Positions 1-18,428 of a DNA stretch of 64,000 bases are shown piece by piece. Source of the stretch: Leucobacter chromiisoli (GTDB taxonomy: Bacteria; Actinomycetota; Actinomycetes; Actinomycetales; Microbacteriaceae); contig NZ_JAEHOH010000007.1 of NCBI RefSeq assembly GCF_016522505.1, forward strand, positions 1-64,000, given 5' to 3'. Position 1 is the stretch's first letter; each line of letters begins with the position of its first letter. Below the pieces are notes generated by a model. It did no database searches. It had not been told where the DNA came from and was given only the letters and a program-made list of their open reading frames with translations. A program made the position numbers and the translations under genes.

Positions 1-743
1 TGCGGGTGCAGGTCCGACGCCGGGGTCGAGCCTGCGGAACGGGCGATCACTCGGCCGTCGGCGAGCTGGTTGACGATGGCGGCGGCGAGCTGGGAGCGGC
101 CCGCGTTCTGCACGCACACGAACAGCACCTGCGGCACCCCCGAAGACCGATCCCGGGTGAGGTCGGCGAGGCGCTGGCGGGCGAAGCGCTCGGTCAGCGG
201 GATCATGTGCTGCGTCAGCTTCGCCGACCGCACCAGGCCGGCGTAGGACTCGCGCACGATCGCGATCACGAGGTCCCGGTTCAGCCCGGTGAGCTCGTCC
301 GCGAGCTCTTCGGCGAGGCGGGTCACGCGGGCGTCCATCTGCTGCAGGGCCTCGGCCCGTGCTGCGGCGTCTTCGGGTTCGTCGGTGACGGCCGCGGCGG
401 GAGCGAACGCGTCGAGGAGGGACGCGACGGCGCGCTGCTTGCCCGGCGCGATGCGGTACCAGACCCAGGTGCCGCGCCGCTCGGAGGCCAGCATCCCGGT
501 CTCCTTGAGCACCTTCAGGTGGTGCGAGACCGTCGGCTGGGAGACCTCTGCCAGCTCGGCGAGGTCGCACACGCAGGACTCGCCGCGCGGGTCGGCCGCG
601 ATCGCGGAGAGCATCCGCAGCCGCAGCGGGTCCGCCAGCGCCTTCAGCGCACTGGCGACCGTGCTCGCCGCCTCCGCGCCGATTGCGTGGGTCGTCGACG
701 GCGAGCATGCCTCGGCGTCGGGGATGGTGGCAGCGTCGGTCAT
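1..743 (-). CDS. ArsR repressor-ArsC arsenate reductase fusion (partial at left edge)
   Basis: The frame stays open to the left edge, so the end of the reductase is missing. Residues 1-115 are a winged-helix ArsR repressor with metal-binding cysteines 57 and 59 (CVCDL) and recognition region SQPTVSHHLKVL. Residues about 125-200 are charged and helical. From about 205 a low-molecular-weight-phosphatase-type ArsC begins, with P-loop C210-X5-R216 (CVQNAGR). Known family roles: ArsR releases DNA on binding As(III)/Sb(III), and ArsC reduces As(V) to As(III). Here both sit on one chain, so the regulator also makes the ligand it senses (inference). The ATG at 743 overlaps the acr3 stop as ATGA, making this the last visible gene of the ars operon. 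Separate arsR and arsC genes are usual; the fusion is uncommon but known in actinobacteria. Confidence 0.93.
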   Translation of the reverse strand, partial: MTDAATIPDAEACSPSTTHAIGAEAASTVASALKALADPLRLRMLSAIAADPRGESCVCDLAELAEVSQPTVSHHLKVLKETGMLASERRGTWVWYRIAPGKQRAVASLLDAFAPAAAVTDEPEDAAARAEALQQMDARVTRLAEELADELTGLNRDLVIAIVRESYAGLVRSAKLTQHMIPLTERFARQRLADLTRDRSSGVPQVLFVCVQNAGRSQLAAAIVNQLADGRVIARSAGSTPASDLHP

Positions 744-1828
744 GACGTCCTCGATTCAGCGGTATACGGATCCGTGCGGAACCAGGCTCTGGCGGCCCAG
801 AGGGAGACGTAGACGAGGCCGACGAGCACAGGGACCTCGATGAGCGGACCCACGACGCCGGCCAGCGCCTGGCCGGAGGCGGCCCCGAAGGTCCCGATGG
901 CGACGGCGATCGCGAGCTCGAAGTTGTTGCCCGCCGCGGTGAACGCCAGCGTCGTCGACCGCGCGTAGCCGAGGCCGATGCCCTTGCCGAGCAGCAGCCC
1001 CGCGAACCACATCAGGCCGAAGTAGACCAGCAGCGGCAGCGCGATGCGCGCCACGTCGAGAGGCTTCGCCAGCACCGCGTTGCCCTGCAGTGCGAACAGC
1101 AGCACGATCGTGAACAGCAGCCCGTAGAGCGCCCACGGCCCGATCCTCGGGAGGAACTTCTCTTCGTACCAGTCGCGCCCCTTGCGCTTCTCGCCGATGA
1201 AGCGGGACGCGAAGCCCGCGATGAGCGGGATCCCGAGGAACACGAGCACGTTCAGCGCGATCTGCCAGACCGAGATCTCCAGTCCCTGTGCGTCCAGGCC
1301 CAGCCAGCCCGGCAGCACAGTCAGGTAGAACCAGCCCAGCACCGAGAACATCACGACCTGGAAGACCGAGTTGATCGCGACGAGCACCGCGGTCGCCTCG
1401 CGGTCGCCGCAGGCGAGGTCGTTCCAGATCACGACCATAGCGATGCATCGGGCGAGGCCGACGATGATCAGCCCGGTCCGGTACTCGGGCAGGTCCGGCA
1501 GGAAGATCCACGCGAGCGCGAACATCACCGCGGGCCCGACGAGCCAGTTCAGCACGAGCGAGGAGACCAGGAGCTTCTTGTCACCCGTGACGGCTGCGAC
1601 CTTGTCGTAGTGGACCTTCGCGAGCACGGGGTACATCATCACCAGCAGGCCCAGCCCGATCGGGACCGAGATCCCGCCGACCTCCATCGCAGACAGCGCG
1701 TCGGAGAGCGCCGGCACGAACCGGCCGAGCACGAGGCCGGCGACCATCGCGAGGCCGATCCAGAGCGGCAGCCACTTGTCGAGGGTGGAGAGCCGTTTCG
1801 GGGTGGTGCGGGTCAGGGCGTCGGTCAT
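740..1828 (-). CDS. acr3: ACR3-family arsenite efflux permease
   Basis: A 362-residue membrane protein with about ten hydrophobic segments and the ACR3 hallmark GLARCIAMVVIWNDLACGD. C128 in that motif is the family's essential cysteine. It should extrude As(III) made by ArsC, driven by the proton gradient, at the cytoplasmic membrane. The ATG at 1828 was chosen because it overlaps the thioredoxin stop (ATGA) and gives a normal N-terminus ([21 protein letters not shown]). The reading frame extends further upstream, but that part is Arg-rich shadow of trxA. The stop overlaps the start of the arsR-arsC fusion. Length and motifs look intact, so the pump itself is probably functional. Confidence 0.95.
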   Translation of the reverse strand: MTDALTRTTPKRLSTLDKWLPLWIGLAMVAGLVLGRFVPALSDALSAMEVGGISVPIGLGLLVMMYPVLAKVHYDKVAAVTGDKKLLVSSLVLNWLVGPAVMFALAWIFLPDLPEYRTGLIIVGLARCIAMVVIWNDLACGDREATAVLVAINSVFQVVMFSVLGWFYLTVLPGWLGLDAQGLEISVWQIALNVLVFLGIPLIAGFASRFIGEKRKGRDWYEEKFLPRIGPWALYGLLFTIVLLFALQGNAVLAKPLDVARIALPLLVYFGLMWFAGLLLGKGIGLGYARSTTLAFTAAGNNFELAIAVAIGTFGAASGQALAGVVGPLIEVPVLVGLVYVSLWAARAWFRTDPYTAESRTS

Positions 1829-2151
1829 GCGAGCAGCTCCTCGAGCTTCGCGACGTAGACGGGTTTCGGGTGCGCGCCGATCAGCACGTCGACACGTTCC
1901 CCGTTCCGGTAGAAGCCGAGGGTCGGGATCGAGGTCACGCCGGCCGCGGTCACGGTCTCGGGGTTCTGGTCGGCGTCGATCTTCACGATCTTCACCCGGC
2001 CCTCGTACTCGCCGGCGAGCTGGTCCAGGATCGGGGCGATCGCCCTGCACGGGCCGCACCAGGTCGCCCAGATGTCGACCACGACGGGCAGCTCGGACTC
2101 GAGCACCTCGGCCTGGAAGGTGGCGTCGGTGACGGGGGTGACGGTGCTCAT
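1825..2151 (-). CDS. trxA: Thioredoxin of the arsenic operon
   Basis: A 108-residue thioredoxin with the active site W31-CGPC and the cis-proline loop [12 protein letters not shown]. It is cytoplasmic, with no signal peptide. In ars operons thioredoxin recycles the disulfide formed in thiol-dependent ArsC. It overlaps trxB upstream and acr3 downstream by ATGA, so its translation is tightly coupled to both. The partner reductase next to it has a nonsense codon, so this thioredoxin probably depends on a reductase encoded elsewhere, if trxB is really dead. It could also act as a general thioredoxin. Confidence 0.95.
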
Positions 2152-3122
2152 ACGGAGACCTCCAGAACAGGCTCGGAAACGGTGGCGGGTGCGAGGTGCG
2201 ACAGGTAGTGCTGGGCGTCCTGCGCGGCCGCGCAGCCGGTGCCCGCGGCGGTGATCGCCTGCCGATACGTGTGGTCGACGAGATCCCCGGCCGCGAACAC
2301 CCCGGCCAGATTCGTCCGCGTCGACGGGTGCGCGACCCGCACGTACCCGTCCGCGTCGGTGTCGACCTGCCCAGTCACGAGCTCGGAGCGCGGGTCGTGC
2401 CCGATCGCGACGAACACCCCCGTCGCGTCGAGCCTCCGCTCGGCCCCGGTGATCGTGTCGCGCAGCGTGAGCCCGGTGACCTGCTCGTCGCCGAGGATCG
2501 CGGCGACCTCGCTGTTCCAGGCGACCTCGATCTTCGGATCGTCCAGCACGCGCTGTGCCATGATTCTCGACGCTCGGAACTCGTCCCGGCGGTGCACGAC
2601 GGTGACTTTCGATGCGAACCGGGTGAGGAACAGCGCCTCCTCCATCGCGGAATCCCCGCCACCGATCACGGCGATCTCCTTGTCGCGGAAGAAGAACCCG
2701 TCGCAGGTCGCGCACCAGGACACTCCGTGCCCCGACAGGCGCTCTTCCTCGGGGAGGCCGAGCTTGCGGTACGCGGAACCCATCGTCAGGATCACCGCCC
2801 GCGCCCGGTACGTCATCCCGGCACCCGTCTCGAGGGTCTTCACGTCGCCGTCGAGCTCGAGGCGAATCGCGTCGTCGTAGACGATCCGAGCGCCGAACCG
2901 CTCAGCCTGCGCCCGCATCGACTCCATCAGCTCCGGCCCCTGCACGCCATCGACGAAGCCGGGGAAGTTCTCCACCTCGGTCGTCGTCATCAGCGCACCG
3001 CCCGCGGTGACCGAGCCCGCGATCACGTTCGGCGCAAGACCCGCGCGGGCCGCGTAGACCGCCGCGGTCTATCCGGCCGGACCGGACCCGACGATGACCA
3101 GTTCGACTTCTTGATTCGACAT
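2148..3122 (-). pseudogene. trxB: Thioredoxin reductase, interrupted by an amber codon
   Basis: The frame would encode a normal-length TrxB (about 324 residues) with redox site CATCDG, NADPH-binding [10 protein letters not shown] and C-terminal FAD motif [15 protein letters not shown]. From the ATG at 3122 the reading is MSNQEVELVIVGSGPAG, then TAG (3069-3071) at codon 18, then [11 protein letters not shown]. Homologues have GPAGYTAA, so the Tyr codon has become amber by one base. Everything after it is uninterrupted. Re-initiation at the GTG at 3026 would lose the FAD-binding GxGxxG, so activity is unlikely. Alternatives are a recent mutation, a sequencing error or amber suppression. It is the promoter-proximal gene of the ars operon and overlaps trxA by ATGA. 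Confidence 0.88.
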
Positions 3123-3130
3123 ACTTCTAT

Positions 3131-3147
3131 ATTGACATCTATCGAAT
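3131..3147 (-). promoter_or_regulatory. Candidate ArsR operator/promoter of the ars operon
   Basis: An AT-rich stretch just upstream of the trxB start reads, on the minus strand, ATTCGATAGATGTCAAT. It is an imperfect palindrome with matching ATT...AAT ends, and it resembles ArsR/SmtB-type operators in actinobacterial ars promoters. It is the only AT-rich block ahead of the operon, so it is the natural place for the promoter and the ArsR site. The assignment is from pattern and position only. Confidence 0.5.
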
Positions 3148-3251
3148 CAGTTCGCGAGCCCATGCCGGCTTTGTCACCGGATGTTCACCTACCGTGCTCA
3201 GGCAGGGCTGCCAACGCCCTTCGCGCGTGACCTCCGCATCATCGACGAACA

Positions 3252-4313
3252 GTGCATGAAAAGTGCACTCTTCAACAATCGGACCTACCAGTAGAGGTGC
3301 TCGAGCGCTTCACGCACGAGCTCGACGTGTATTCGATCGACGAGGCGTTCGCCGCGGTGGATCGTCGGACTTCGGCCGATCCCGAGGCCATGTCGGTGCT
3401 CGGGCGCACAATCAGAGACGAGGTGCGCCGGCTCGTCGGTGTGCCCGTCTGCGTCGGGATCGCGCCGACCCGCACCCTCGCGAAGCTCGCGAACCGCGCG
3501 GCCAAGAAGATCCCGGTCTTCGAAGGGGTGTGCGTGTGGCCGGCGACGCGGGAGGCGTGGCGCGAGCAGCTGATGCGCCGACTGCCGGTCTCGGAGGTCT
3601 GGGGGATCGCGCGGCGCCTCGAGCGGCGGCTCGCAGGGTACGGCATCACCTCCGTGTGGGATCTCGCCACCGCGGATCCTGCGCAGATCCGACGCTGCTT
3701 TTCCGTGGTCGTCATGCGTACCGCGCTCGAGCTGCGCGGGGTCGCGTGCATCGGCCCGGAGGAGGATCGCACGGGGAAGAAAGACGAGCTGATCGTGTCG
3801 CGTTCCTTCTCAGAGAAGGTGTCCACGATTGAGGGGATGCGGCAGGCGCTCTCGATCTATGCGCAGCAGGCCGCGGCGCGCCTGGTGAAGCACCGGCAGG
3901 TGGCGAAGTCGGTGCAGGCGTTCGCCGGCACGAGTCACTGGCACGAGCAGCAGCACTATCCGGCTGTCCGGGTGCCGCTCCCCTATCCGACGGCCGATCC
4001 GGTCATGCTGACGCGAGCGGCACATCTGCTGCTCCCGCAGATTCAGGAGGGAACGCGGTATGCGCGGGCCGGGCTCCTGCTTACGGATCTGCACGCGGCT
4101 GAGGCGCACCAGGCCCTCGAGTTGTTCAGGCACGTCCACGAGGATGCGAGTATCGCGACGCTCGTGGACGCGGTGCAGAAGAAGGCCGGCCGAGAGGTGC
4201 TCGGGCTCGGCTATGGCGGTCTCCGGCCCGGCCCGGCCTGGCAGATGAAGCGTGGACTGCTGACGCCCAGGGCGACAACTCATTGGGACGAGCTCATGAT
4301 CGTCCGGGCGTAG
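3252..4313 (+). pseudogene. Y-family DNA polymerase (UmuC/DinB type), N-terminally truncated
   Basis: Homology starts abruptly at about 3291 (VEVLERFTHELDVYSIDEAF) and runs to a typical UmuC-type C-terminus (TTHWDELMIVRA). The palm motif YSIDEAF with catalytic acidic residues, the VCVGIAPTRTLAKLAN helix and the little-finger region are present. The first roughly 100 residues, including the first catalytic Asp of the family, are absent; complete proteins are about 420-430 residues. The 13 residues before VEVL (MHEKCTLQQSDLP) do not resemble the family. Without the first metal ligand it should not polymerise. The break lies about 170 bp from the ars promoter, so a deletion or insertion boundary probably passes here. 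Confidence 0.82.
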
Positions 4314-4352
4314 GGCCGACTACCGTCTGCAGCTACGACTGTGCTGAAGCTC

Positions 4353-4712
4353 TCAGGAGTCGAAGATGTCTCCGAGGAACTCGAAGGGACTCTTCTTTTT
4401 GCGGTAGCGGGGGTCGCGTTGGCGATCGTCGGAGTAGCCGCCGCGTCGGTCACCGTGGTGGCCTTCTCGTCGGCGGTCGTCGTGATGACTGTCGCGACGT
4501 CGATCGTCGTACCGGGGTGCCTCGTAGTCGTCATAGCGGGGTTCTGCATACTGCGAGCCTGGCGCCGCGTCGCTTTCGGCCTGCATACGCTCGAGGATCT
4601 TGTCTAGCTCGCCCCGGTCGAGCCAGATGCCCCGGCACTGCGGGCAGTAGTCGACTTCGACTCCCTGTCGCTCGCTCATCAACAGGGTGGTTCCATCGCT
4701 GGGGCAGTTCAT
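4353..4712 (-). CDS. Zinc-ribbon (TFIIB-type) protein with charged His/Asp/Arg-rich tail
   Basis: A 119-residue protein starting MNCPSDGTTLLMSERQGVEV, followed by DYCPQCRGIWLDRGELDKIL, the zf-TFIIB signature. C23 and C26 form one knuckle; the first knuckle keeps only C3, as in many members. Residues 55-105 are a low-complexity tail rich in Asp, Arg, His and Tyr (RYDDYEAPRYDDRRRD type), ending in KKKSPFEFLGDIFDS. The ATG at 4712 was chosen because the motif begins there and the upstream frame has no family-like sequence. Function is unknown for this family; a small zinc or nucleic-acid binding role is a guess. Confidence 0.85.
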   Translation of the reverse strand: MNCPSDGTTLLMSERQGVEVDYCPQCRGIWLDRGELDKILERMQAESDAAPGSQYAEPRYDDYEAPRYDDRRRDSHHDDRRREGHHGDRRGGYSDDRQRDPRYRKKKSPFEFLGDIFDS

Positions 4713-4794
4713 GATGTCAGCGTAAAGCAGCCGGGTCGCTCCCTGGCTGTGAAGTTGACTGCCGCAGCCTGGGAGTTCGTCGCGCGTTGCCGAG

Positions 4795-5409
4795 TCAGAG
4801 TCGGAACTCCAAGAGCCAGTCGACGGCGAGCTGCGCGACGGTGGCGACAATGACGAAGTGGAGGAGGATCGCGACCCATGCCCAGGACGCGAATCCTTTG
4901 AGCGCGCGCATGGCGGAGTCGCCCGGGAGGAGGAGGCCGTCGGCGCCGGCTTTCGCGACGGTGACCCACCAGAGCGGGATCATGGCCGTCCAGACGACCA
5001 TGCACCAGGGGCAGAGGGTGCCGAGAGAGTAGAAGCTCTGGTACTGCAGCCAGGTGATGAAGACGATGCCTCCGAGGAGGCCGAGGCAGTAGAGCCGCCA
5101 AAACCATTGGGCGAAGTGTGCTCCGGCGAGGATCGCGGCCCCGACGAGGATCGGCGCGGTGAAGGCGGTGACGCCGATGATGGTGTTGGAGAACCCGAAG
5201 AGGGAACCCTGCCAGGAGTCCATGTTCGGCCCGCAGGTGACGAGCTTCGAGATGTTGCAGTTGGGCGCGTGGGTGGGTTCCTGCAGGGTCTTGATGTACT
5301 CGGTGAGCAGTTCGAAGGAGGCGAACCAGCCGACGATGCCGGCCACGATCGAGAACCAGGCGAAGCCGATGCGTCGTCGGCGTAGCGGTGTCTCAGCGCT
5401 CGTGGTCAT
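4795..5409 (-). CDS. Vitamin K epoxide reductase (VKOR) family protein
   Basis: A 204-residue membrane protein with about five transmembrane helices. It has the VKOR pattern: loop cysteines C51 and C59 in NCNISKLVTCG, a conserved Ser/Trp region (DSWQGSLFGFSN), and redox motif C133-PW-C136. Bacterial VKORs reoxidise DsbA-type oxidases using quinone, in place of DsbB. The DsbA-like protein at 29.4-30.2 kb is a plausible partner on the same island (inference). In the uninterrupted ancestor its neighbour was the cupredoxin lipoprotein gene, so it may serve copper or cytochrome maturation outside the membrane. Confidence 0.93.
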   Translation of the reverse strand: MTTSAETPLRRRRIGFAWFSIVAGIVGWFASFELLTEYIKTLQEPTHAPNCNISKLVTCGPNMDSWQGSLFGFSNTIIGVTAFTAPILVGAAILAGAHFAQWFWRLYCLGLLGGIVFITWLQYQSFYSLGTLCPWCMVVWTAMIPLWWVTVAKAGADGLLLPGDSAMRALKGFASWAWVAILLHFVIVATVAQLAVDWLLEFRL

Positions 5410-5510
5410 GGTTCGAATCTACACAAGGGGAGGCTGAACGGATGACGGCTGCTCGATACGAATGCAGCGGCCGGGCAGAGGCGCTCTGCATGCGGGATCC
5501 TGGGCACGGG

Positions 5511-5732
5511 TCAGTCGGCCGTCACGTTGACGACGCCTTTCATCTCCGCGTGAATGGAACAGTCGTATTCGTAGCTGCCGGCCTGGTCGAAGACATGGGT
5601 GAAGCTGCCCTGTCGCATGAGATCGCTCACGAAGCTCGCATCCTGGGCGACGACATCGTGCTCGTTCTGTCCCTCGAACACCCAGCGCACCGCTTCGCCC
5701 TCGGCAACCTCGACCTCGGCTATGTCGTAGGC
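5511..5732 (-). pseudogene. Cupredoxin lipoprotein, C-terminal part
   Basis: The last 70 codons of a small copper protein, preceded by a 9-bp repeat (AYD). It contains EVEVAEGEAVRWVF and the type-1 copper ligands: His in NEHDVV, then Cys, His and Met in YDCSIHAEMKG. It has no start of its own and is read in frame from the IS3 transposase upstream, giving a chimeric frame that ends VNVTAD. Joined to the piece at 8593-8748 it gives an intact protein of about 122 residues with a lipoprotein signal. The two pieces are therefore one gene split by the 5733-8592 insertion. Confidence 0.88.
5724..5732. repeat. 9-bp direct repeat, left copy
   Basis: GTCGTAGGC on the plus strand, identical to 8593-8601. 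In both copies it encodes Ala-Tyr-Asp of the cupredoxin on the minus strand. Removing the insert and one copy restores the cupredoxin frame, as expected for a target-site duplication. Confidence 0.75.
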
Positions 5733-6425
5733 GTCGAACGAATCCCCGACGGTTCCGGTCGAGGGAACAGCGCCGAGTTCTTGGATACGGTCGGTATAGA
5801 CCATGGCCGTGTAGTTCGACCCGTGATCAGCATGATGGATGAGCCCATCGAGCCGGCCGCCTGACTGCCATGCCGCCATATCGAGTGCTTGCATCGGCAG
5901 AATCTCTGACTTCAGTGACGAAGCAACGTTCCAACCCACGATCCTGCGCGAGTACACATCCGTGACGAACGCGACATACGCGAACCCGGACCAAGTAGCG
6001 ACGTAGGTCACATCGCACACCCAGAGCTTGCGCGGCCCATCAGCGACGAATCTCCGGTTCACGAGATCAGCAGGCAATGCCAGCGCCTTGTCCGGGCGCG
6101 TGGTGAATACCCGCTTCGATTTTCGCACCCCGCGCACACCGGTGAGCCGCATCAGACGCTCGGTCTGGTCGCGGCCGATCTCCCACCCCTCACGCTTGAG
6201 TAGGGCGTGCATCTTCCGTCGCCCGTACACGTTGTAATGCTTCGCGTGGAGGCGCTGGATCTCGGACACGAGCAACTTGTCACGGAGCTGTCTCACCGAG
6301 GTCGGCCGCGACTTGGCTGCCCGGTAACCACGCGAGGTGAGAAACCCACGAACTGCCGTCCTGAGCGTACGGCAGAGGAACTCGACCCCGAAACGATCAC
6401 GATGCTCGTCGATGAACTGGATCAT
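5733..6425 (-). pseudogene. IS3-family transposase OrfB, N-terminal part
   Basis: It encodes the HTH_21 region (LRDKLLVSEIQRLHAKHYNV, YGRRKMHALLKREG) and the first two catalytic Asp residues of the rve core, in WVCDVTYVATW and HHADHGSNY. It stops at VGDSFD, where the sequence switches to cupredoxin. The catalytic Glu is missing; it lies in the piece at 8377-8592. The ATG at 6425 overlaps the orfA stop as ATGA, and no A-rich slippery run is visible. Coupled re-initiation rather than -1 frameshifting is therefore likely in this member. The chimeric frame continues to 5511. Confidence 0.9.
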
Positions 6426-6736
6426 TTCGTTCGTGGCCGGTCGAGTTCCTTCGCGAAAAACACGCTCGCAGCTTTAAGAACCTCGTTGGCCTTCTTCAGC
6501 TCGGCGTTCTCGCGTCGCAGACGTCGGTTCTCTTCGGCCATATCGCTCGTGACGCCGGGTCTCACGCCGGTATCGATGTCGTAGCGGCGCTGCCACACTC
6601 TCAGCGTCTCCGGGCTCACTCCAAGGAGGCCGCCGACGTGTCGGCAAGCGGCGGTCAGCGATTCAAATTCGGGGCGGGCCTCGGCAAGCATGCGGAGCGC
6701 ACGCTGACGAAGTTCGGGGTCGTATTTGCTTGGCAT
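6422..6736 (-). CDS. IS3-family transposase OrfA (HTH)
   Basis: A 104-residue OrfA: N-terminal helix-turn-helix (YDPELRQRALRMLAEARPE, LLGVSPETLRVWQRRYDID), then a leucine-zipper-like helix (EENRRLRRENAELKKANEVL) and the typical ending KAASVFFAKELDRP. OrfA binds the element's ends and works with OrfB. It appears intact and lies 20 bp inside the left inverted repeat. OrfB is split in this copy, so the element cannot move itself without help or re-circularisation. Confidence 0.93.
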   Translation of the reverse strand: MPSKYDPELRQRALRMLAEARPEFESLTAACRHVGGLLGVSPETLRVWQRRYDIDTGVRPGVTSDMAEENRRLRRENAELKKANEVLKAASVFFAKELDRPRTK

Positions 6737-6756
6737 CGTAGTTCCATCCTTATATA

Positions 6757-6785
6757 CAGATCGGAACTAAACCCAGGCCAATTCA
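6757..6785 (-). repeat. Left terminal inverted repeat of the IS3-family element
   Basis: On the minus strand it begins TGAATTGGCCTGGGTTTAGT and continues to TTCCGATCTG. It matches 8340-8368 with only four mismatches over the 29 bp compared. It starts with the 5'-TG usual for IS3 ends and lies just upstream of orfA, as IRL should. Confidence 0.85.
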
Positions 6786-6923
6786 CGGATAGCTATTGGG
6801 TCGAGCTACAGGCACCGCAACGTTGAAGGTGAAGACGAAATCCGTAATTGGATCAGTGCTCTGGGAACCGAGACAGCACGAGGCTCCGACATCGGCGAGG
6901 CCTCAGAGTTAGGACTCCCGGCT

Positions 6924-8243
6924 CTAATTCGTCTCCTCTTTTGCTCTCACCCGCATAACGATCACCTGGCCGACGATAACGGCTGTCGCAACCGCTGCAG
7001 CGACAATTACGGTTTGAAGATCGCTTTGCACTTTAAGAATCGTGAAGGAAATCAGAATCGAGAAGTTGAGCAATATTGTGAGAAGCGGTGCCCACGGCTT
7101 TGCCTTGATTTTTGTCCGGAGGTGCCGAATCACGCCCCATTGCACCGCGATGTCCATTGCGAGGTAGAGGAACGCTCCCATCGATGCGATCTGAGTGAGG
7201 TCCAGGAAGGCTGTGGCGATAATCGCGAGCCCAGCCGTGATGATCAGCGGCTGTTGCGGGACGCGCGCAGGCAGTGACGGCGTCTGGCGCATGTCTTGGA
7301 GCATTCCGTAGAGGCGTGATACCGAATACAGACTGGCCAGCAGCCCGGACAGTGTGGCGACAACGGCGATCGCCACCGTGATTCCGATACCCCACGAGCC
7401 AAAGAGCGGTTCGGCTGCCGCAGCCAACGCATAATCACGCGCTTTTACCGCGCCTGCGGCCCCAATACTGGACTCTACCGAGACGGTGATCAGCATGTAG
7501 AGGACCGTGCAGACCGCCAGGGAAATGACGATCGAGCGCGCAATGTTCTTTTTCGCGTCCTGAATGTCGTCACCTTGGTTGGTTATGGTGGTGAACCCTT
7601 TGTAGGCGAGCACACACAGGACCGTTCCGGCGAGCAGTCCGACGATATCGGGGGCCTCGCCTGAGCTTTGGGCGAAGAGTCCGGATCCTGATGCGACAGC
7701 ACCGACGAGTCCCGCTATAGCGAGCAGTGCGATGCCCACGATCTTGATGATCGCAGTCGTGGTCGCGGATCCTTCAACGAGCTTATTACCGAGCAAGTTC
7801 ACGATGGCTGCTGCCACGATCGCAAGCACGCCCAGGAGGGGGACGAGAATTGCAGAGTCTTGTAGGCCAAATGGGCGCAGCAGGTAAGTTCCGAAGGTGC
7901 GGGCGAGGAGACTTTCCGCGACCACCATTGAGACGTACATGAACAGGGTAAACGATCCCGCAGCGACCCCCGGTCCGTACGCATCTTTCAGTAGCATCGC
8001 AATACCACCCGCAGAGGGGTTCACGCTTGAATATCGCGTGTACGAGTAGGCGCTGACACCGGCGACAATCGCGCCGAGCAGAAACGCGAGCGGAAACCAG
8101 TCTCCGGCGAAGCCCGCGACCTGCCCGACGAGCGCAAAGATTCCCGCCCCGATCATCACTCCGGTGCCGAGCGAAACGGACCCGACGAGTGAAATCCTGC
8201 CCTTCGTTGCGACCATGTGAACCCCTCGCTCCTTCTCGTTCAA
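6924..8243 (-). CDS. APC-family amino-acid permease
   Basis: A 439-residue protein with about twelve membrane segments. The N-terminal signature VSLGTGVMIGAGIFALVGQVAG has the substrate-backbone-binding GAGIF of the amino acid-polyamine-organocation superfamily. It should be an inner-membrane symporter or exchanger; the substrate cannot be read from sequence. The start at 8243 (MNEKERGVHMVATKGR) has a possible alternative nine codons later. Codon use is more AT-rich than neighbouring genes. It lies between the two inverted repeats of the permuted IS, outside the IS proper, so it is cargo. A 9-bp inverted repeat sits 43 bp upstream of its start and may regulate it. Confidence 0.92.
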   Translation of the reverse strand: MNEKERGVHMVATKGRISLVGSVSLGTGVMIGAGIFALVGQVAGFAGDWFPLAFLLGAIVAGVSAYSYTRYSSVNPSAGGIAMLLKDAYGPGVAAGSFTLFMYVSMVVAESLLARTFGTYLLRPFGLQDSAILVPLLGVLAIVAAAIVNLLGNKLVEGSATTTAIIKIVGIALLAIAGLVGAVASGSGLFAQSSGEAPDIVGLLAGTVLCVLAYKGFTTITNQGDDIQDAKKNIARSIVISLAVCTVLYMLITVSVESSIGAAGAVKARDYALAAAAEPLFGSWGIGITVAIAVVATLSGLLASLYSVSRLYGMLQDMRQTPSLPARVPQQPLIITAGLAIIATAFLDLTQIASMGAFLYLAMDIAVQWGVIRHLRTKIKAKPWAPLLTILLNFSILISFTILKVQSDLQTVIVAAAVATAVIVGQVIVMRVRAKEETN

Positions 8244-8285
8244 TTTCGGTTTTCACGCCATGCTTACTAAGCAGGGAGCAGTACT

Positions 8286-8318
8286 TTGCACTTCCCCACG
8301 TTCTAGTTTGAAGTGCAA
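8286..8318 (-). promoter_or_regulatory. Inverted repeat upstream of the permease gene
   Basis: TTGCACTTC (8286-8294) and GAAGTGCAA (8310-8318) form a perfect 9-bp inverted repeat with a 15-bp spacer, just upstream of the permease start at 8243. The arm spacing of about 24 bp fits a dimeric or tetrameric regulator. There is no T-run, so an operator is more likely than a terminator. No regulator gene travels with it. Confidence 0.5.
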
Positions 8319-8339
8319 CATCAGGGTGTGGGGATGGGT

Positions 8340-8368
8340 TGAATTGGCCTGGTTTGAGTTCCGACCGG
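8340..8368 (+). repeat. Right terminal inverted repeat of the IS3-family element
   Basis: On the plus strand it begins TGAATTGGCCTGGTTTGAGT and continues to TTCCGACCGG. It is the partner of 6757-6785 and lies 9 bp beyond the orfB stop (8377), the normal place for IRR. The two repeats face away from each other across the permease gene, which shows the permuted layout. Confidence 0.85.
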
Positions 8369-8376
8369 TTTTCCTG

Positions 8377-8592
8377 TCAGCCGGTTGGTGACAGAAGCGT
8401 CTCGGTCTCAGCGTAGTATGCCTGCTCGACTTCGGCCGGGGTGCGCATGTCGAGTTCCCCGTGAAGTCGTTCATGGTTCCACCACCACACGTACTTAAGG
8501 GTCGCGAGCTCGACCTGCTCAACGGTCCGCCATGGCCCTTGCTGACGAATAAGCTCGGTCTTGTAGAGATTGTTGACCGCCTCAGCCATCGC
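8377..8592 (-). pseudogene. IS3-family transposase OrfB, C-terminal part
   Basis: 71 codons starting AMAEAVNNLYKTELIRQQGP, with the catalytic Glu in AMAEAV, and continuing through the usual WWWNHERLHGELDMRTPAEVE ending. It is read in frame from the cupredoxin lipoprotein start at 8748, so the open frame is a chimera of signal peptide plus transposase tail. It complements the piece at 5733-6425. Joined directly they lack one residue (usually Asn) of the family motif GDSxDNAxAE. Confidence 0.9.
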
Positions 8593-8601
8593 GTCGTAGG
8601 C
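8593..8601. repeat. 9-bp direct repeat, right copy
   Basis: Identical to 5724-5732 (GTCGTAGGC on the plus strand). It marks the cupredoxin/transposase junction on the right of the insertion. Confidence 0.75.
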
Positions 8602-8748
8602 CCGTACCGTGACGGCGGGGGCGGCGTCCTCGGCAGAGGGGGTGACCTCGGGCTTCGTGGCGGCACAGGCGGCGAGTCCTCCGAGCAGGCCGACTGTTAG
8701 GACGGCTCCGAGGGCGTGCACGAGGATGCGGCGAGTGTCGGCGTCCAT
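8593..8748 (-). pseudogene. Cupredoxin lipoprotein, N-terminal part
   Basis: 52 codons from the ATG at 8748, preceded by a GAGAG ribosome site. MDADTRRILVHALGAVLTV is followed by lipobox LAAC with Cys 28, so the intact protein would be a membrane-anchored lipoprotein. A Thr/Glu/Ala-rich linker then leads to VTVRAYD, where the transposase tail begins. It rejoins in frame with 5511-5732. The ancestral product would carry one type-1 copper outside the membrane, which fits the copper and cytochrome genes nearby. Confidence 0.86.
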
Positions 8749-8830
8749 GGTGTCTCTCTTACTCTCGATTTCTGGGTTAGTGTGGGCGTGCGACGCGGGA
8801 CTGCTCTCCCGGTGTCGACTCGGCGGCGCT

Positions 8831-9889
8831 CTACCGGGTTCCCCGCTCCTTCGGCGCGGAGGTGTGCTGGATGAGGTCGATGCGCTGCCGGCCGTACCCG
8901 CCCCGTGTGAAGACGCGCAGCGTGAGCCAGGCGAAGAGCGCAAGACCGGCGATCTGGCCGATCAGTCCGGCGGCGCTGCCGTCGCCTGTGGTCTGCGCGG
9001 TTTCCCCGGTGAGGCCCGACGCCATGATGCCGAAAGCGACGTAGTTGTTGACGACGTGGATCGCGATCGCTGCCTCGAGGCCGCCGGTGCGCCAGGTGAG
9101 CCAGGCGGATACTGCGCCAAGCAACCCGACGGCGAGGAGTCCCCAGATGTCGTAGATGTGGAGGGACGCGAAGCCGATCGAGGGGATCAGGATCGCGAAC
9201 CAGGGGTTTCTGAGCCAGGCTCCCAGCACCTGCATGAAGAGTCCCCGGAAGACGATCTCTTCGGCAGTGGATTGCAGCGGCACCAGGAGCAGCACGAGCA
9301 GCATCGATAGCAGCGCGGCGCGTGCATCGAAGGCAGTCTCGTTCGCAGCCGCTGCAGGGTCGGTGGCGGGCTCGAGGAGCACGCCTGCGGCGATACCGAC
9401 GAGGTTCATCACGGCGATCGCGAGCACGGAGATGACGAACAGTCGCCCGAGCAGCCCCCAGCGCATGCGGGCCGCGACTGACCAGATCAGGCCGATGGGC
9501 CGCATGCCGAGGACGAGCATCGCGAGCAGCACCGCCGGGAGCATGATGATGATCGACACCATGCTCACGAGTACCGAGACGGGCCGTTGGGTGTCGAGCG
9601 CCGCGGCAGTGCCGGCGGCGACCTGCGCCGGATAGTCGGGATCCGTGAGCAGGAGCACTGGGATGACGGCCACGGTGACTACCACGGTGAGGATGCCGAA
9701 GAAGGCCCCTGACAGCAGGAGCAGGGCGAGCGGTTTCCACCATCGGTAGGCGGAGGTGCCGCGCAGCAGGCTGTGGTAGTCGAGCGGTTCGGTCTCCATG
9801 ATGCGCAGCTGCGGCGGCGTGCCCCGTGCCCAGCCCCAGGACGGCGACACTGCAGACGGCGCGTGGGGCTCGGACTCGGGGCTGGACAT
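8831..9889 (-). CDS. CPBP (Abi/CAAX) family intramembrane metalloprotease
   Basis: A 352-residue multi-span protein with the CPBP motif EEIVFRGLFMQ (Glu-Glu and Arg) and two later His-containing helices (FASLHIYDIWG, AIHVVNNYVAFG) that complete the metal site. Family members are prenyl-protein proteases or of unknown substrate; some help in bacteriocin self-protection. It is the gene upstream of the interrupted cupredoxin on the same strand. A second, distinct CPBP gene lies in the copper operon at 11.1-11.9 kb, which suggests that this protease type is linked to the island's metal functions (inference). Confidence 0.9.
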   Translation of the reverse strand: MSSPESEPHAPSAVSPSWGWARGTPPQLRIMETEPLDYHSLLRGTSAYRWWKPLALLLLSGAFFGILTVVVTVAVIPVLLLTDPDYPAQVAAGTAAALDTQRPVSVLVSMVSIIIMLPAVLLAMLVLGMRPIGLIWSVAARMRWGLLGRLFVISVLAIAVMNLVGIAAGVLLEPATDPAAAANETAFDARAALLSMLLVLLLVPLQSTAEEIVFRGLFMQVLGAWLRNPWFAILIPSIGFASLHIYDIWGLLAVGLLGAVSAWLTWRTGGLEAAIAIHVVNNYVAFGIMASGLTGETAQTTGDGSAAGLIGQIAGLALFAWLTLRVFTRGGYGRQRIDLIQHTSAPKERGTR

Positions 9890-9910
9890 GCGGGGAACTG
9901 CGGTTGCGGC

Positions 9911-10300
9911 TCAGGCGGGGGCGTTCGTCGGCTGCTGCGCGCGGTAGCGGCGGGCGCGGACGAAGGAGGCGATGCCGACGGCGAGGAATACGAGGAGCAC
10001 GACGAAGGTGACGGTGCTCGCGATCACGGCGTTCGGTCGCTCGGCGGTGCCGGCGAAGAGTTCCCCGATCTTCATCACGTTCATCGCGGTGCCGGCGATG
10101 CCGAGGAGGGCGATCGCGAGGGCGGCGTGGATCGCGTGGCGGCGGGCTTTCGGCGCGCGTGAGATGACGGCTGCGACGAGGATGAGCACGCCGAGTGCGG
10201 AGGGGATGAGTGCGGTCATGCTGCTCGCGTCGGACGCGAAGTAGGCGACGACGCCGGTGGCGGTGAGGATGCCGCCGACGGCGAAGGTGAGTCCGGTCAT
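9911..10300 (-). CDS. Small four-helix membrane protein, unknown
   Basis: A 129-residue protein with four predicted membrane helices (TFAVGGILTATGVVAYFA, LIPSALGVLILVAAVI, HAALAIALLGIAGTAM, VIASTVTFVVLLVFLAVG). No catalytic motif is visible and the family is not recognised. The ATG at 10300 follows an AGGAAT-type site and leaves the divergent intergenic region with the CTACA-N3-TGTAG palindrome upstream. It may thus belong to the same metal-responsive regulon. It is 21 bp upstream of the CPBP gene and probably co-transcribed. Confidence 0.75.
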   Translation of the reverse strand: MTGLTFAVGGILTATGVVAYFASDASSMTALIPSALGVLILVAAVISRAPKARRHAIHAALAIALLGIAGTAMNVMKIGELFAGTAERPNAVIASTVTFVVLLVFLAVGIASFVRARRYRAQQPTNAPA

Positions 10301-10418
10301 GGTCAGTATTCCTTTCGCAGACGCCGCAGGGGTTCTGGGCCGCGCCGGGCGCCCGGGATGTCTCCTCCCCTCCCCCGGGTTCGGGGAACCTCGAGGGATG
10401 CGGGCCTTGGCCCGTACT

Positions 10419-10431
10419 CTACATGATGTAG
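10419..10431. promoter_or_regulatory. CTACA-N3-TGTAG palindrome (BlaI/CopY-type operator candidate)
   Basis: CTACATGATGTAG lies between the divergent genes 9911-10300 and 10448-11056. It matches the palindrome upstream of copZ (16458-16470) in arms and spacer length and in the following GA-x-GTA. The TACA/TGTA core is that bound by BlaI/MecI/CopY repressors, and a BlaI-type gene is present at 17332-17709. It probably controls both divergent genes. Confidence 0.65.
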
Positions 10432-10447
10432 ATGTAAGCTCGTGGGT

Positions 10448-11056
10448 ATGCTGGCTTCCCCGTGGAATCTGATTCTCACCGTCGTCTTCGCGTTCACCGG
10501 GGTGTACTGCCTCGTGCGCCTCATCGCGCACCGGCCCCCTCCCGGCGCGCGGCGCGGCCCGGTGCTCGAGTCGATGGCGATCCATCTCATGCACCTGGTG
10601 ATGAGCGCCGGGATGATCGCGATGTGCTGGATGATGTCGATTCCGGCGGCGTCGAACTGGGCGCAGATCGTGGTCTTCACCGTACTTGCGCTCGCCCTAG
10701 TGCCGGGGCTCTGGAAGGCGCCGTTGCCGGCCCGCCGCGTCGATCTCGCCGGGCATATCTGGCTCGCTGGCGCGATGGTGTGGATGATCGCGGCGATGCC
10801 GCTGCTCATGGCGGACATGGGCGGCGGGGAGCACGGTGGCGGCCACGGAGAGGCCGCTGATGAGGCGATGATGTTGGCGATGACCACCCCGGTGTGGGTG
10901 GACGTCGTCAACGTGGTGTTTGTGGCTGGAAGCGCAGCGATCGCACTGTGGTGGGCCTTCCGCGCGGCGACGGTTCGCGGGGATCGGTTGCACGCGCTCT
11001 GCCACTGCCTGATGGCGGCGGGGATGACGGCGATGCTGCTGCTCATGAACGGGTAG
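10448..11056 (+). CDS. DUF5134-like membrane protein, Met/His-rich
   Basis: A 202-residue protein with about six membrane helices that are unusually rich in Met (MHLVMSAGMIAMCWMMS). A periplasm-side loop reads MADMGGGEHGGGHGEAADEA. The Met/His pattern is typical of copper-handling membrane proteins, and similar proteins sit beside copper genes in actinobacteria. The function is not established. The ATG at 10448 was preferred to the GTG two codons upstream. Expression is probably under the palindrome at 10419-10431, 17 bp upstream. Its last codon is 9 bp from the convergent CPBP gene. Confidence 0.78.
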   Translation: MLASPWNLILTVVFAFTGVYCLVRLIAHRPPPGARRGPVLESMAIHLMHLVMSAGMIAMCWMMSIPAASNWAQIVVFTVLALALVPGLWKAPLPARRVDLAGHIWLAGAMVWMIAAMPLLMADMGGGEHGGGHGEAADEAMMLAMTTPVWVDVVNVVFVAGSAAIALWWAFRAATVRGDRLHALCHCLMAAGMTAMLLLMNG

Positions 11057-11064
11057 TCGGCCTG

Positions 11065-11880
11065 CTATGGCGCGACTTGGAAGAGAGTGGGCCAGAGCAG
11101 CAGCGCGAGCGGGTAGCCGACGAAGCTGACGATGTTGAGCAGCCAGTGCGCGACGATGAGCGGCAACGACCTCCCCCAGCGGTGGTAGACCCAGCCGAAG
11201 AGGAGCCCCATGACCACGTTGCCGATGAATGCGCCGATGCCCTGGTAGAGGTGGTAGCTGCCGCGCAGCAGTGCGCTTGAGACGATGGTGGAGATCGGGC
11301 CGACCCCGAGGCGTCGCATACGGTCGAAGAAGTAGGCGACGACGATGAGTTCCTCGCCGAGAGCTGCACGCAGGGCGGAGAGGATCAGCACGGGCACCGT
11401 CCACCAGTAGGCGTCGAGGGCGGTCGGTACGACGTTCGCGTTGATTCCGATGATGCGCGAGAAGAGGTAGAACGCGAGCCCCGGGATCCCGATCGCAGCC
11501 GCGAGCACGACACCCCAGCCGGTGTCTGCCAGCCACCACCGGCCGCCCCTGCCGGGGAGCCGTCCGAGGCCGAGGTTTCCCAGGTGCGGGGCCGCTGTGC
11601 GCCAGAGCAGATACGCCACGAGCGCGACGGGTGCGAGTTCCCCCACGAAGCCGAGCAGCTGGTAGGCGAGGTCGAAGAGGGGCTGCTCGGCCAGCGGCCG
11701 GTTGATGGTGGCGGTCTGGGAGGCGAGCGCGGTCTCCTGGCTGAGGCGGCGCAGGATCGTGATGATCGACTGCACGCCCGCGTAGCCGAAAGACAGTGCG
11801 AGCACGATCGCGAGCTCCCAGCGCAGTCGACGCTTCGAGATCGGGGCAACGTCGAAGCGCGCGTATTGGGGTGGTCGCAC
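11065..11880 (-). CDS. CPBP family intramembrane protease of the copper operon
   Basis: A 271-residue multi-span protein with a CPBP core: GEELIVVAYFFDRMRRLG (Glu pair), RGSYHLYQGIGAFIGN and the final SLPLIVAHWLLNIVSF, giving the Glu and His residues of the metal site. No ATG is available after the copA stop at 11895; the GTG at 11880 (VRPPQYARFDVAPISKRRLR) is the best start, 15 bp downstream of copA. It is the last gene of copZ > copD-ctaG > copA > CPBP. Its substrate is unknown; placement suggests a role in copper stress or processing of a membrane-bound partner. Confidence 0.85.
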   Translation of the reverse strand: MRPPQYARFDVAPISKRRLRWELAIVLALSFGYAGVQSIITILRRLSQETALASQTATINRPLAEQPLFDLAYQLLGFVGELAPVALVAYLLWRTAAPHLGNLGLGRLPGRGGRWWLADTGWGVVLAAAIGIPGLAFYLFSRIIGINANVVPTALDAYWWTVPVLILSALRAALGEELIVVAYFFDRMRRLGVGPISTIVSSALLRGSYHLYQGIGAFIGNVVMGLLFGWVYHRWGRSLPLIVAHWLLNIVSFVGYPLALLLWPTLFQVAP

Positions 11881-11894
11881 CTTTGAGAGCCCGT

Positions 11895-14135
11895 CTATAT
11901 CCGGCGGCGGTAGTTCTGCAGCCGAAGGCTGTTGAAGACGACGAGCACCGAGGAGAGTGCCATGGCGCCGGCGGCGATGAGGGGATTCAGTAAGCCGGCA
12001 GCGGCGATCGGGATCGCGGCGAGGTTGTAGCCGAACGCCCAGCCGAGGTTCACGCGGATGGTGCGAAGGGTGCGACGGGAGAGCTCGATCGCCTCGGGGA
12101 TCACGGCGAGGTCTTCCCGAACGAGGATGACGTCGGCCGATTTGAGGGCGATGTCGGTGCCGGAGACGACGGCGAGGCCGAGGTCGGCGGCGGCGAGGGC
12201 GACGGCGTCGTTGATGCCGTCGCCGACCATCGCGACCCGCTCTCCCGCCGCTTGCAGCTCGCGAATCGCATCGCCTTTCTCGGCGGGCAGCACTTCTGCG
12301 GAGACGCGGTCGATGCCGAGGGTGTCGGCGATCTCCTCTGCGGCCGTTCGGGAGTCGCCGGTGAGCAGCACGGTGGTGAGGCCCTGTTGCTGCAGCGCTT
12401 GGATTGCAGCACGGGCGTTCGGCTTGATGGTGTCGGCGAGTCCGAAGCGCCCGATCAGGCGTCCTGCCTGGGAGACGAACACGGTCGATTCCGTGGCGTC
12501 GGCCTCGGTGAGGTAGACGCGGGCGGCACCGGTCGAGACGCCCTGCTCGTCCAGGTAGGCGAGGCTGCCGATGTGGACGGTGTCGCCGGCGACGGTGCCG
12601 GAGGCGCCCCGGCCGGGCACGGCGATGAAGTCTCTGACGGGGTCGAGGTCGGCGATCTGCTGCTTCGCGGCCGCGACGATGGCACGGGCGATGAGGTGCT
12701 CCGATCCCTGCTCCACGGAGGCGGCGACGCGTAGCAGCTCGTGCTCGGCGACGCCGGGAACGGTGGCGATGCTGCGCACGGTCATCTCGCCGGTGGTGAG
12801 GGTACCGGTCTTGTCGAGCACCACGGTGGTGATCGTGCCGCTCGCCTCGAGCGCGTCCTGCCCCTTCACGAGGATGCCGAGGCTGGCGCCCCGGCCGATG
12901 CCGACCATGAGCGCGGTCGGAGTGGCGAGCCCGAGGGCGCATGGGCAGGCAATGATGAGGGTGGAGATCCCGATCCCGAAGGCCTCTTCAAAGGAGCGGC
13001 CGGCGAGCATCCACCCAGTGGTGACGAGGATGGCGAGAACGATCACTCCGGGTACGAAGTAGCGGGTGACGCGGTCGACGAGGGTCTGCACGCGGGCTTT
13101 GCGGGCCTGGGCTTGTTCGGCGAGGGCGGTCATCTGCGCGAGCTGGGTGTGTGCGCCGACCGAGCTCGTGCGCACTTCGAGGCGGCCGTTGGTGCTGATC
13201 GTGCCGCCGATCACCGCATCGCCGCTCGAGGCAGTGACGGGGAGCGGTTCGCCGGTGAGCATGCTGGCGTCGATGTCGGCGCTACCGACGATGATGGTGC
13301 CGTCGGCGGGGAGAGTTTCGCCGGGGAGCACGACGAACACGTCGTCGACGCGGAGTTCCGTGGCGGGCCTGATCTCCTCGGTGCCGTCGCGCTGGATGCG
13401 GACGTGCGTGGCGGCAAGCTCGCTGAGAGCGCCGAGCACGTCGCCGGCTTTGCGGCGTGAGCGGGTTTCGAAGTAGCGGCCGGCGAGCTGAAAGGTGGTC
13501 ATGCCGGCGGCGACGTCCAGATAGATGGCGTTTGCCCCCTCGGGAGTGGCGCCGATGCCAAGCCAGTATCCGGCCCCGCTCCCCTCGATACCGAGTAGCA
13601 GCGTCACAACCGACCAGCCGAAGGACGCGGCGATGCCGAGGGAGACGAGGGTATCCATGCTGACGTCGCCGTGGCGGAGGTTTCTGAGGGTGGCCTTGTG
13701 GAACGGCCAGGCCGCCCAGGTGACGATCGGCACGGCGAGGGCGACGCAGAGCCATTCCCAGCCGGGGAAGCGCCACTCGGGGACGAGGGCGAGCACGATC
13801 GTGAGATCCATGAGCGGCACGGTGAGCACGGCGGCGAGGATGAGCCGTCTGCGCAGCGAGGTGATGCGCACTTCGGTAGCGCGCTTTGACCAGGCGTCGT
13901 CGGCGTCGTCGTGGATGCGCGCCCCGTAGCCGGCTTTCTCGACGCGCTCGAGTGCTTCGCTCGCGCGAGCGGCGCCGAGGCCAGAGACGATGGCGCGCTC
14001 GGTCGCGTAGTTCACGCTCGCGGTGACACCCTCGATCTTGTTCAGGGCGCGCTCGACGCGTCCCGCGCAGGCGGCGCAGGTCATGCCTGAGACGTCGAGC
14101 TGCAACGGCTCGACGACGTCGGGGGCGAGGGTCAC
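11895..14135 (-). CDS. copA: Copper-translocating P1B-type ATPase
   Basis: A 746-residue pump. The N-terminal HMA domain has GMTC20AAC23, a helical segment pair and actuator loop TGEPLP precede the rest, the membrane metal site CPCALGLATP lies near residue 397, the phosphorylation motif DKTGTLTTG near residue 438, and GDGINDAVALAAAD near the C-terminus. CPC plus an MxCxxC domain indicates Cu(I) export from the cytoplasm. It overlaps the copD-ctaG stop by ATGA (14132-14135). CopZ, two genes upstream, is the natural chaperone. All core motifs are intact. Confidence 0.97.
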   Translation of the reverse strand: MTLAPDVVEPLQLDVSGMTCAACAGRVERALNKIEGVTASVNYATERAIVSGLGAARASEALERVEKAGYGARIHDDADDAWSKRATEVRITSLRRRLILAAVLTVPLMDLTIVLALVPEWRFPGWEWLCVALAVPIVTWAAWPFHKATLRNLRHGDVSMDTLVSLGIAASFGWSVVTLLLGIEGSGAGYWLGIGATPEGANAIYLDVAAGMTTFQLAGRYFETRSRRKAGDVLGALSELAATHVRIQRDGTEEIRPATELRVDDVFVVLPGETLPADGTIIVGSADIDASMLTGEPLPVTASSGDAVIGGTISTNGRLEVRTSSVGAHTQLAQMTALAEQAQARKARVQTLVDRVTRYFVPGVIVLAILVTTGWMLAGRSFEEAFGIGISTLIIACPCALGLATPTALMVGIGRGASLGILVKGQDALEASGTITTVVLDKTGTLTTGEMTVRSIATVPGVAEHELLRVAASVEQGSEHLIARAIVAAAKQQIADLDPVRDFIAVPGRGASGTVAGDTVHIGSLAYLDEQGVSTGAARVYLTEADATESTVFVSQAGRLIGRFGLADTIKPNARAAIQALQQQGLTTVLLTGDSRTAAEEIADTLGIDRVSAEVLPAEKGDAIRELQAAGERVAMVGDGINDAVALAAADLGLAVVSGTDIALKSADVILVREDLAVIPEAIELSRRTLRTIRVNLGWAFGYNLAAIPIAAAGLLNPLIAAGAMALSSVLVVFNSLRLQNYRRRI

Positions 14136-16422: not shown

Positions 16423-16457
16423 CGCCGTCGTCCTCTCCTCGGGATACTCGCTTAAGA

Positions 16458-16470: not shown

Positions 16471-16509
16471 ACGTACGCGAGCTTGGCGCGGGCAGCCGGC
16501 GCGACGAGG

Positions 16510-17325: not shown

Positions 17326-17331
17326 GGTCGG

Positions 17332-18424: not shown

Positions 18425-18428
18425 ATCA

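What the first reader, a model, noticed from the sequence alone, without database searches (positions are those of the whole stretch)
5511..8748. Cupredoxin gene split by a circularly permuted IS3-permease segment with 9-bp direct repeats
Seen directly: two chimeric frames. One starts as a cupredoxin lipoprotein and ends as the IS3 OrfB tail; the other starts as IS3 OrfB and ends as cupredoxin. Deleting 5733-8592 plus one 9-bp repeat restores a full cupredoxin of about 122 codons in frame. Joining the ends of 5733-8592 restores OrfB in frame, missing one Asn of GDSxDNAxAE. The segment also holds both IS inverted repeats and a permease gene. Inference: a circle of one IS copy plus permease opened inside the transposase gene, at the catalytic-Glu motif, and inserted with target duplication. 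IS3 elements normally insert by their terminal repeats with 3-5 bp duplications, so neither the end points nor the 9-bp repeat fit known IS3 movement.
Basis: partly seen in the sequence, partly recalled or inferred. Interest (0 to 1): 0.78.

Follow-up and report, generated by a model that had tools for sequence, protein, structure and literature searches.

The report
Gene split at an IS110 target site
A piece of DNA carrying a transporter gene and a scrambled insertion sequence sits inside a copper-protein gene, and both cut points look like the landing site of a second jumping element, of a kind known to be RNA-guided, that is no longer there.

Summary
The arrangement is real: in a Leucobacter genome 2,860 bp (5733-8592: split IS3 orfB, orfA, both inverted repeats, an amino-acid permease) interrupt a cupredoxin gene. 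The 9-bp target duplication is not real: three relatives with the uninterrupted gene read GCCTACGAC-AAC-GCCTACGAC, so both copies are native and the insertion only removed AAC. That native site, TACGAC|AACGCC, is the target of an IS110-family element (here ISX): 17 of 17 copies read at both ends, in Leucobacter, other Microbacteriaceae, Micrococcus and Streptomyces, lie at TWYGAC|AAYGCS, typically in IS3-type transposase genes. The segment's IS3 break is the same base, where Leucobacter sp. wl10 carries ISX in a 112-bp IS3 fragment identical to the window's. Both window junctions lack AAC; so does 1 of 63 other IS3 sites, a truncated near-twin of an ISX-disrupted copy. Best reading: ISX sat at both sites, the segment entered between ISX ends, and ISX left, deleting AAC. 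Former presence of ISX is inferred; none remains. No new IS3 behaviour is needed.

The parts
5511..5732 (-). 3' part of the cupredoxin gene; its first bases GCC(TACGAC) are the right half of the IS110 target (AAC lost)
   Evidence: Pfam Copper-bind on the chimeric frame
8593..8748 (-). 5' part of the cupredoxin lipoprotein gene, ending ...GCCTACGAC = left half of the IS110 target
5724..5732 (-). native copy 2 of GCCTACGAC (present in uninterrupted relatives, not a target duplication)
   Evidence: G029, G046, G047 read GCCTACGAC-AAC-GCCTACGAC
8593..8601 (-). native copy 1 of GCCTACGAC
5732..5733 (-). junction B: IS3 left target half TTCGAC joined to cupredoxin right half GCC, AAC missing
8592..8593 (-). 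junction A: cupredoxin left target half CTACGAC joined to IS3 right half GCG, AAC missing
5733..6425 (-). front part of IS3-family orfB up to GDSFD
6422..6736 (-). IS3-family orfA
6756..6785 (.). IS3 terminal inverted repeat, orfA side
   Evidence: 30 nt, 87% complementary to 8340-8369; IS3 matches in relatives end near here
6924..8243 (-). amino-acid permease gene (439 aa, full-length match to AA_permease_2), cargo
8340..8369 (.). IS3 terminal inverted repeat, orfB side
8377..8592 (-). tail of IS3-family orfB starting AMAE

Best explanation
The cupredoxin gene carried by chance a perfect target (CTACGAC|AACGCC) of an IS110-family element (ISX; by family, RNA-guided) that normally lands in IS3-type transposase genes at the codons for GDSYD|NAxAE. 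ISX also sat in the IS3 copies around the permease. The DNA between two ISX copies in an IS3-permease-IS3 array, or a circle of one IS3 plus permease opened at its ISX, is exactly this 'permuted' segment. It entered the cupredoxin between ISX ends, either by homologous exchange between ISX copies or as an ISX-segment-ISX composite. Both ISX copies were later lost, each time joining the two target halves without AAC (through the AC present on both sides). Shown: empty site, native repeat, target identity of both sites, one matching AAC-less site elsewhere. Inferred: former presence of ISX at both junctions, the array or circle, and the order of steps.
For: The empty site in G029, G046 and G047 is GCCTACGAC-AAC-GCCTACGAC. 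ISX-family copies read at both ends lie at TWYGAC|AAYGCS in 17 of 17, 13 distinct flanks. The cupredoxin site scores among the real targets; 0 of 122,256 positions of the insert-free window score as high with the 7+6 matrix. The IS3 break is the same site, one position in a roughly 1,309-bp IS. Leucobacter sp. wl10 holds 112 bp of the same IS3, 100% identical, cut at that base by ISX. AAC is missing at both window junctions; of 63 other distinct IS3 sites matching my pattern (34, 34, 5 shared) one lacks it, in Ca. L. sulfamidivorax (G036), in a copy 99.6% identical over 1,058 bp to an ISX-disrupted copy of that genome. G036 has four full ISX copies, the most I found in one genome.
Against: No IS110 element was found in the window's genome, so its past presence is inferred. 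IS110 excision is described as scarless (PMC11208160, passages), so an AAC-deleting exit is unusual; only one AAC-less IS3 copy outside the window supports it, that copy is itself truncated soon after the site, and a 3-bp slip at GACAACGCC could make it. The 63 sites are not independent (21 are copies of one IS in G025). No donor array and no ISX-permease composite was found in the searches made. With 12 left positions in the matrix 13 of 122,246 window positions score at least as high, so only the inner bases match. G036 holds a 59-bp ISX left-end remnant at a non-consensus flank, CTTGAT. A guide RNA was not demonstrated: the fold of the left end is no better than shuffles (z -0.25).
Confidence: 0.7

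Rival explanations
1. The IS110 recombinase, supplied in trans, recombined two of its target sites directly (IS3-permease circle and cupredoxin) without ever being inserted in either, or cut both and left the ends to end joining, which trimmed AAC.
For: Both junctions join left and right halves of two ISX targets. For IS621, rare genomic deletions and inversions between insertion sites are reported (PMC11208160, passage). Ku is encoded in this genome, and GAC/AAC offers AC microhomology.
Against: Reciprocal exchange between two sites that both read GACAACGC should keep AAC; it is missing twice. The described reaction pairs a donor with a target (PMC11208158, passages).
Confidence: 0.15
2. Chance illegitimate recombination or end joining between the shared 9-mer CGACAACGC of the cupredoxin and IS3, with no IS110 involved.
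For: The cupredoxin site and the inferred intact IS3 site share CGACAACGC (the intact form of this IS3 isoform was not seen). Ku is present.
Against: A crossover in the shared bases keeps AAC. It ignores that this exact base is where ISX cuts the identical IS3 fragment in wl10.
Confidence: 0.08
3. A circle of IS3 plus permease integrated by an unknown transposition with a 9-bp target duplication.
For: The window alone looks like a 9-bp duplication.
Against: Both 9-bp copies are native, 3 bp apart, in three relatives.
Confidence: 0.01
4. Chimeric assembly: the draft (42 contigs) joins pieces that are not neighbours.
For: Draft genome; the IS belongs to a repeat-prone family.
Against: The searches found the segment and both cupredoxin halves once in the assembly, no intact copy of this cupredoxin and no second copy of this IS; contig ends too short for those searches could be missed. 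Flanks match G029 up to the junctions.
Confidence: 0.04

Closest known systems
ISEc21 (IS110 family; Siddiquee et al. 2024, PMC11187229, passages read)
   Same: IS110-type element with upstream non-coding region and a 358-aa transposase; target lies in IS3-family transposase genes at a conserved catalytic motif; no target duplication
   Different: ISEc21 targets codons around the second D of DDE, ISX the GDSYD|NAxAE codons; no cargo exchange or AAC scar in the passages read
IS621 bridge recombination (PMC11208160 and PMC11208158, passages read)
   Same: Same transposase domains (PF01548 and PF02371); RNA-guided insertion, excision and inversion between a donor and a target site
   Different: IS621 is described as scarless with a CT core; here junctions lose 3 bp and the element is gone
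ISEc11 (IS1111 family; PMC11187229, passages read)
   Same: Circle formed, but the rejoined target was not detected, so the donor site need not be restored cleanly
   Different: IS1111 group, other target
Proposed origin of Tn916 by imprecise excision (PMC7288454, passages read)
   Same: Authors suggest an imprecise excision possibly mediated by an IS110 transposase that leaves foreign DNA behind
   Different: A plasmid insertion, no defined IS110 target or 3-bp scar in the passages read
IS-flanked composite transposons and translocatable units (IS26 type; recalled)
   Same: One IS plus cargo as the moving unit, hence a permuted IS
   Different: Here the unit is bounded by a second IS's target sites, not by IS ends

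Membership tests
IS3 family (the IS in the segment) | orfA with HTH_Tnp_1 and orfB with HTH_21/rve, transpos_IS3 profile | tested here: met
   orfB split at profile position 314
IS3 family (the IS in the segment) | terminal inverted repeats | tested here: met
   30 nt, 87% complementary; similar ends in intact copies of G029 and G030
IS3 family (the IS in the segment) | 3-5 bp target duplication at its own ends (recalled) | not testable with these tools
   outer flanks of the original IS copies are lost; the permease lies between the ends
DDE transposition with 9-bp target duplication | repeat created by the insertion | tested here: not met
   both copies present in three uninterrupted relatives
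IS110 family (ISX, in relatives) | DEDD_Tnp_IS110 and Transposase_20 domains | tested here: met
   NF033542 over its cut-off; one protein tested
IS110 family (ISX, in relatives) | long upstream non-coding end, no target duplication, fixed target | tested here: met
   about 264 nt before the gene in G036; 17 of 17 copies read at both ends are clean at GAC|AAY
IS110 family (ISX, in relatives) | bridge RNA / seekRNA | tested here: inconclusive
   GCGTT, complementary to AACGC, is kept in the left end of the nine full copies aligned, but fold z -0.25
IS110-flanked composite transposon | two IS copies flanking the cargo | tested here: not met
   no IS110 found in the genome today; past presence inferred from two AAC-less joins

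The most novel reading that the evidence does not exclude
IS110 elements are exchange points: two genes that carry the same guide target can swap the DNA between them through resident copies, and when the element leaves it deletes 3 bp instead of restoring the target. A vanished RNA-guided element can then be read from paired 3-bp scars.
Probability: 0.35. Interest if true: 0.68.

Novelty: new variant of a known kind. Interest (0 to 1): 0.52.

Why it matters
It replaces a supposed new IS3 behaviour by a testable effect of an RNA-guided recombinase family on neighbouring DNA. If the AAC-deleting exit is general for this group, IS110 excision is not always scarless, which bears on the mechanism of excision (left open in PMC11208158, passage) and on the use of these enzymes as tools. 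It also warns that a short direct repeat at an insertion is not a target duplication until the empty site has been read.

Tried and rejected
Rejected: target duplication and a DDE-type insertion. An IS256-like insertion in the C37 IS3 copy as cause: it lies several codons before the motif, a different site. My first target matrix scored the window-restored cupredoxin site, which lacks AACGCC, and gave only moderate support; with the true empty site replaces it. Until I took the 9-bp repeat for a duplication and considered a split-guide duplication and a 9-nt fill-in; notebook entries still say so and are superseded.

Searches that gave nothing: plasmids for the segment, near mode; phages for ISX; viral contigs with the ISX protein (13 pattern matches, none a relative). 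Guide RNA folding was inconclusive. Rows dropped: one of 8 pattern hits (G007) is not ISX, and that call covered 60 genomes, only G000 to G036 of the 54 Leucobacter genomes; one search found ISX at E 1e-90 or better in 2 of 299 family genomes. Of 38 plasmid records with an ISX relative (12 covering 80% or more) I fetched 10; 8 showed both ends, 2 one end. Of 32 loci, 24 are unrelated proteins; the window's own record may be missing from that collection. The 63-site count holds only sites that fit my pattern. No structure prediction was made.
Full report
What is in the window. The window is the first 64 kb of contig C36 (125,290 bp) of a draft genome (3.35 Mb, 42 contigs). Named records point to the genus Leucobacter: two congeneric genomes of the search, G036 and G051, have contigs of the same lengths as records of Candidatus Leucobacter sulfamidivorax GP and Leucobacter sp. 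wl10 that hold the same matches. Between a VKOR gene (4795-5409, minus) and a CPBP-type protease gene (8831-9889, minus) lie two chimeric frames. They are a cupredoxin lipoprotein gene cut by 2,860 bp (5733-8592) that hold, on the minus strand, an orfB tail, an IS3 inverted repeat, an amino-acid permease, the other inverted repeat, orfA and the orfB front.

The repeat is not a duplication. Of 100 relatives searched, three hold the gene at 89-100% identity without interruption, G029, G046 and G047; the other matches are 34-63% identical. Read base by base the three have GCCTACGAC AAC GCCTACGAC (protein VRAYDNAYD), so both 9-bp copies flanking the insertion were already there, three bases apart. 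The native gene has 126 codons in G029. G029 has both neighbours in place, with flanks 99.87% and 99.96% identical over 2,340 and 2,658 bp; over longer stretches it matches at 96% (window 1-5734) and 100% rounded (8593-20000). G046 and G047 have the VKOR side in place and about 2 kb of other DNA on the CPBP side. The event is therefore an insertion of 2,860 bp with loss of AAC, and nothing was duplicated.

Both cut points are one and the same site type. Intact IS3 relatives have three bases more at this point than the window's copy (for instance G030, G017, G025 and G087), and the pattern searches show that these are the Asn codon: 62 of 63 distinct sites have AAC or AAT (34 sites in 11 of 54 Leucobacter genomes; 34 in 23 of 398 Microbacteriaceae genomes; 5 shared). 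The sites are not independent, since 21 are copies in one genome. In relatives I found an IS110-family element exactly between GAC and AAC, here called ISX: 1,340-1,351 bp, TGTCAGTCT...GGAGC(A/G/T)TC, with a 356-aa transposase in G036 that has the DEDD_Tnp_IS110 and Transposase_20 domains. G036 has four full copies in two different IS3 types; further copies are in G003, G019, G146, G197 and a Microbacteriaceae MAG (L100). Plasmid relatives, 72.7-79.2% identical over 96-100% of ISX in the eight fetched, in Microbacterium, Micrococcus and Streptomyces, lie at the same site. Of the 17 copies I read at both ends (13 distinct flanks), 17 are at TWYGAC|AAYGCS with no duplication. Where the neighbouring frame was translated or annotated it is an IS3-type transposase; some plasmid records carry no annotation there. 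One-ended copies are in wl10/G051, G008, L174 and L175. One 59-bp left-end remnant in G036 has another left flank, CTTGAT.

The cupredoxin site CTACGAC|AACGCC is a perfect member of this set. With matrices from six targets, using 6 to 9 left and 3 to 6 right positions, it scores like the real targets or, with 9 left positions, somewhat below them, and no position of the insert-free window, both strands, reaches it (0 of 122,252 to 122,264 in four matrices). With 12 left positions the signal fades: it scores far below the targets and 13 of 122,246 positions reach it. So only the inner bases match. An earlier matrix run on the window-restored site is superseded. In wl10 a 112-bp fragment of the same IS3, 100% identical to 5733-5844, ends at the same base and continues into ISX. 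So the IS3 isoform of this segment is known to carry ISX at the very base where the segment ends.

The scar. Junction A joins the cupredoxin left half to the IS3 right half, junction B the IS3 left half to the cupredoxin right half; both lack AAC. A scan of genome contigs for the left half followed by a base other than A gave 32 loci, of which 8 are IS3 OrfB by upstream translation: 6 run into ISX, 1 (L105, G036) runs straight into GCC with AAC missing, 1 (L122, Mumia) has a larger deletion. L105 is 99.6% identical over 1,058 bp to the ISX-disrupted copy of the same genome; it is truncated about 110 bp after the site. The same AAC loss thus occurs once more, in the genome with the most ISX copies found, and in none of the other 62 sites. 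A simple reading is that ISX leaves by joining GAC to GCC through the AC on each side. This may be its normal core exchange, or repair of broken ends; Ku is encoded here. In L100 the triplet after ISX is AAT, which suggests that the triplet comes from the target and not from ISX.

Mechanism. If ISX sits in both IS3 copies of an IS3-permease-IS3 array, the DNA between the ISX copies is exactly the permuted segment; a circle of one IS3 plus permease opened at its ISX gives the same piece. Exchange between such an ISX and an ISX in the cupredoxin, or transposition of the ISX-bounded unit to that target, puts the segment in place; loss of both ISX copies leaves the observed bases at both ends. Both joins stay in frame because the target has the same phase (D-N-A) in both genes. 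ISX was not found in this genome, so this part is inference. Direct recombination of two target sites by enzyme acting in trans is less likely because it should keep AAC, although rare deletions and inversions between insertion sites are reported for IS621 (PMC11208160, passage).

What is known. An IS110 element (ISEc21) that targets IS3 transposase genes at another catalytic motif is published (PMC11187229, passages read); the same paper reports that ISEc11 forms circles without detectable restored target. The bridge RNA papers call IS110 excision scarless and leave its mechanism open (PMC11208160 and PMC11208158, passages read). One paper proposes an imprecise excision, possibly by an IS110 transposase, in the origin of Tn916 (PMC7288454, passages read); a Kocuria genome paper describes an IS110 element without such an event in the passages read (PMC12500396). 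In the listings of my searches for IS110 with bridge RNA, excision, empty site, composite transposon, donor-site break, IS3 targets, and for translocatable units I saw no report of cargo exchange at IS110 targets or of a 3-bp exit scar. The library holds only part of the literature, and two older papers that the bridge RNA paper cites were not held.

Limits. There is a single rearranged locus in a draft genome and one independent AAC-less copy; no donor array and no intermediate was found in the searches made; the guide RNA was not shown. Against misassembly: the searches found no second copy of the segment or of this cupredoxin, but very short contig ends could have been missed.

Noticed in passing
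L004 (G000:C37:84500-89187), about 1391-3840: Another IS3 copy of this genome has its orfB interrupted a few codons before the GDSYDN motif by an IS256-like element with a stop inside its gene (family name by eye, not searched); near-identical 9-mers TCGGCGCGA/TCGGTGCGA lie at its ends.
   Followed up: partly
L076 about 6021-6350; L164 about 1102-1329; L165 about 1151-1348: In G036, G047 and G052 a truncated IS3 tail ends at the same base (window equivalent 8567) and continues into nearly the same sequence; in G036 a P-type-ATPase-like reading frame follows (by eye). This looks like one shared mobile block.
   Followed up: no
L090 minus strand about 2048: A 59-bp left-end remnant of ISX at a non-consensus flank, followed by another IS3-like element (by eye) that is itself cut by a full ISX copy.
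   Followed up: no
L122 (Mumia xiangluensis) about 7649: IS3 orfB with a larger deletion starting exactly after GDSFD, the ISX site.
   Followed up: no
G000:C3 and G000:C20, position 1: Two contigs begin inside copies of another IS3, 20 bp before the GTCGG of the same motif; the copies differ by single bases, so an ordinary repeat break is likely.
   Followed up: partly
L071 about 840-1880: In wl10 the IS3 fragment next to ISX is cut on its other side by sequence that reads like a different IS3 element (by eye).
   Followed up: no
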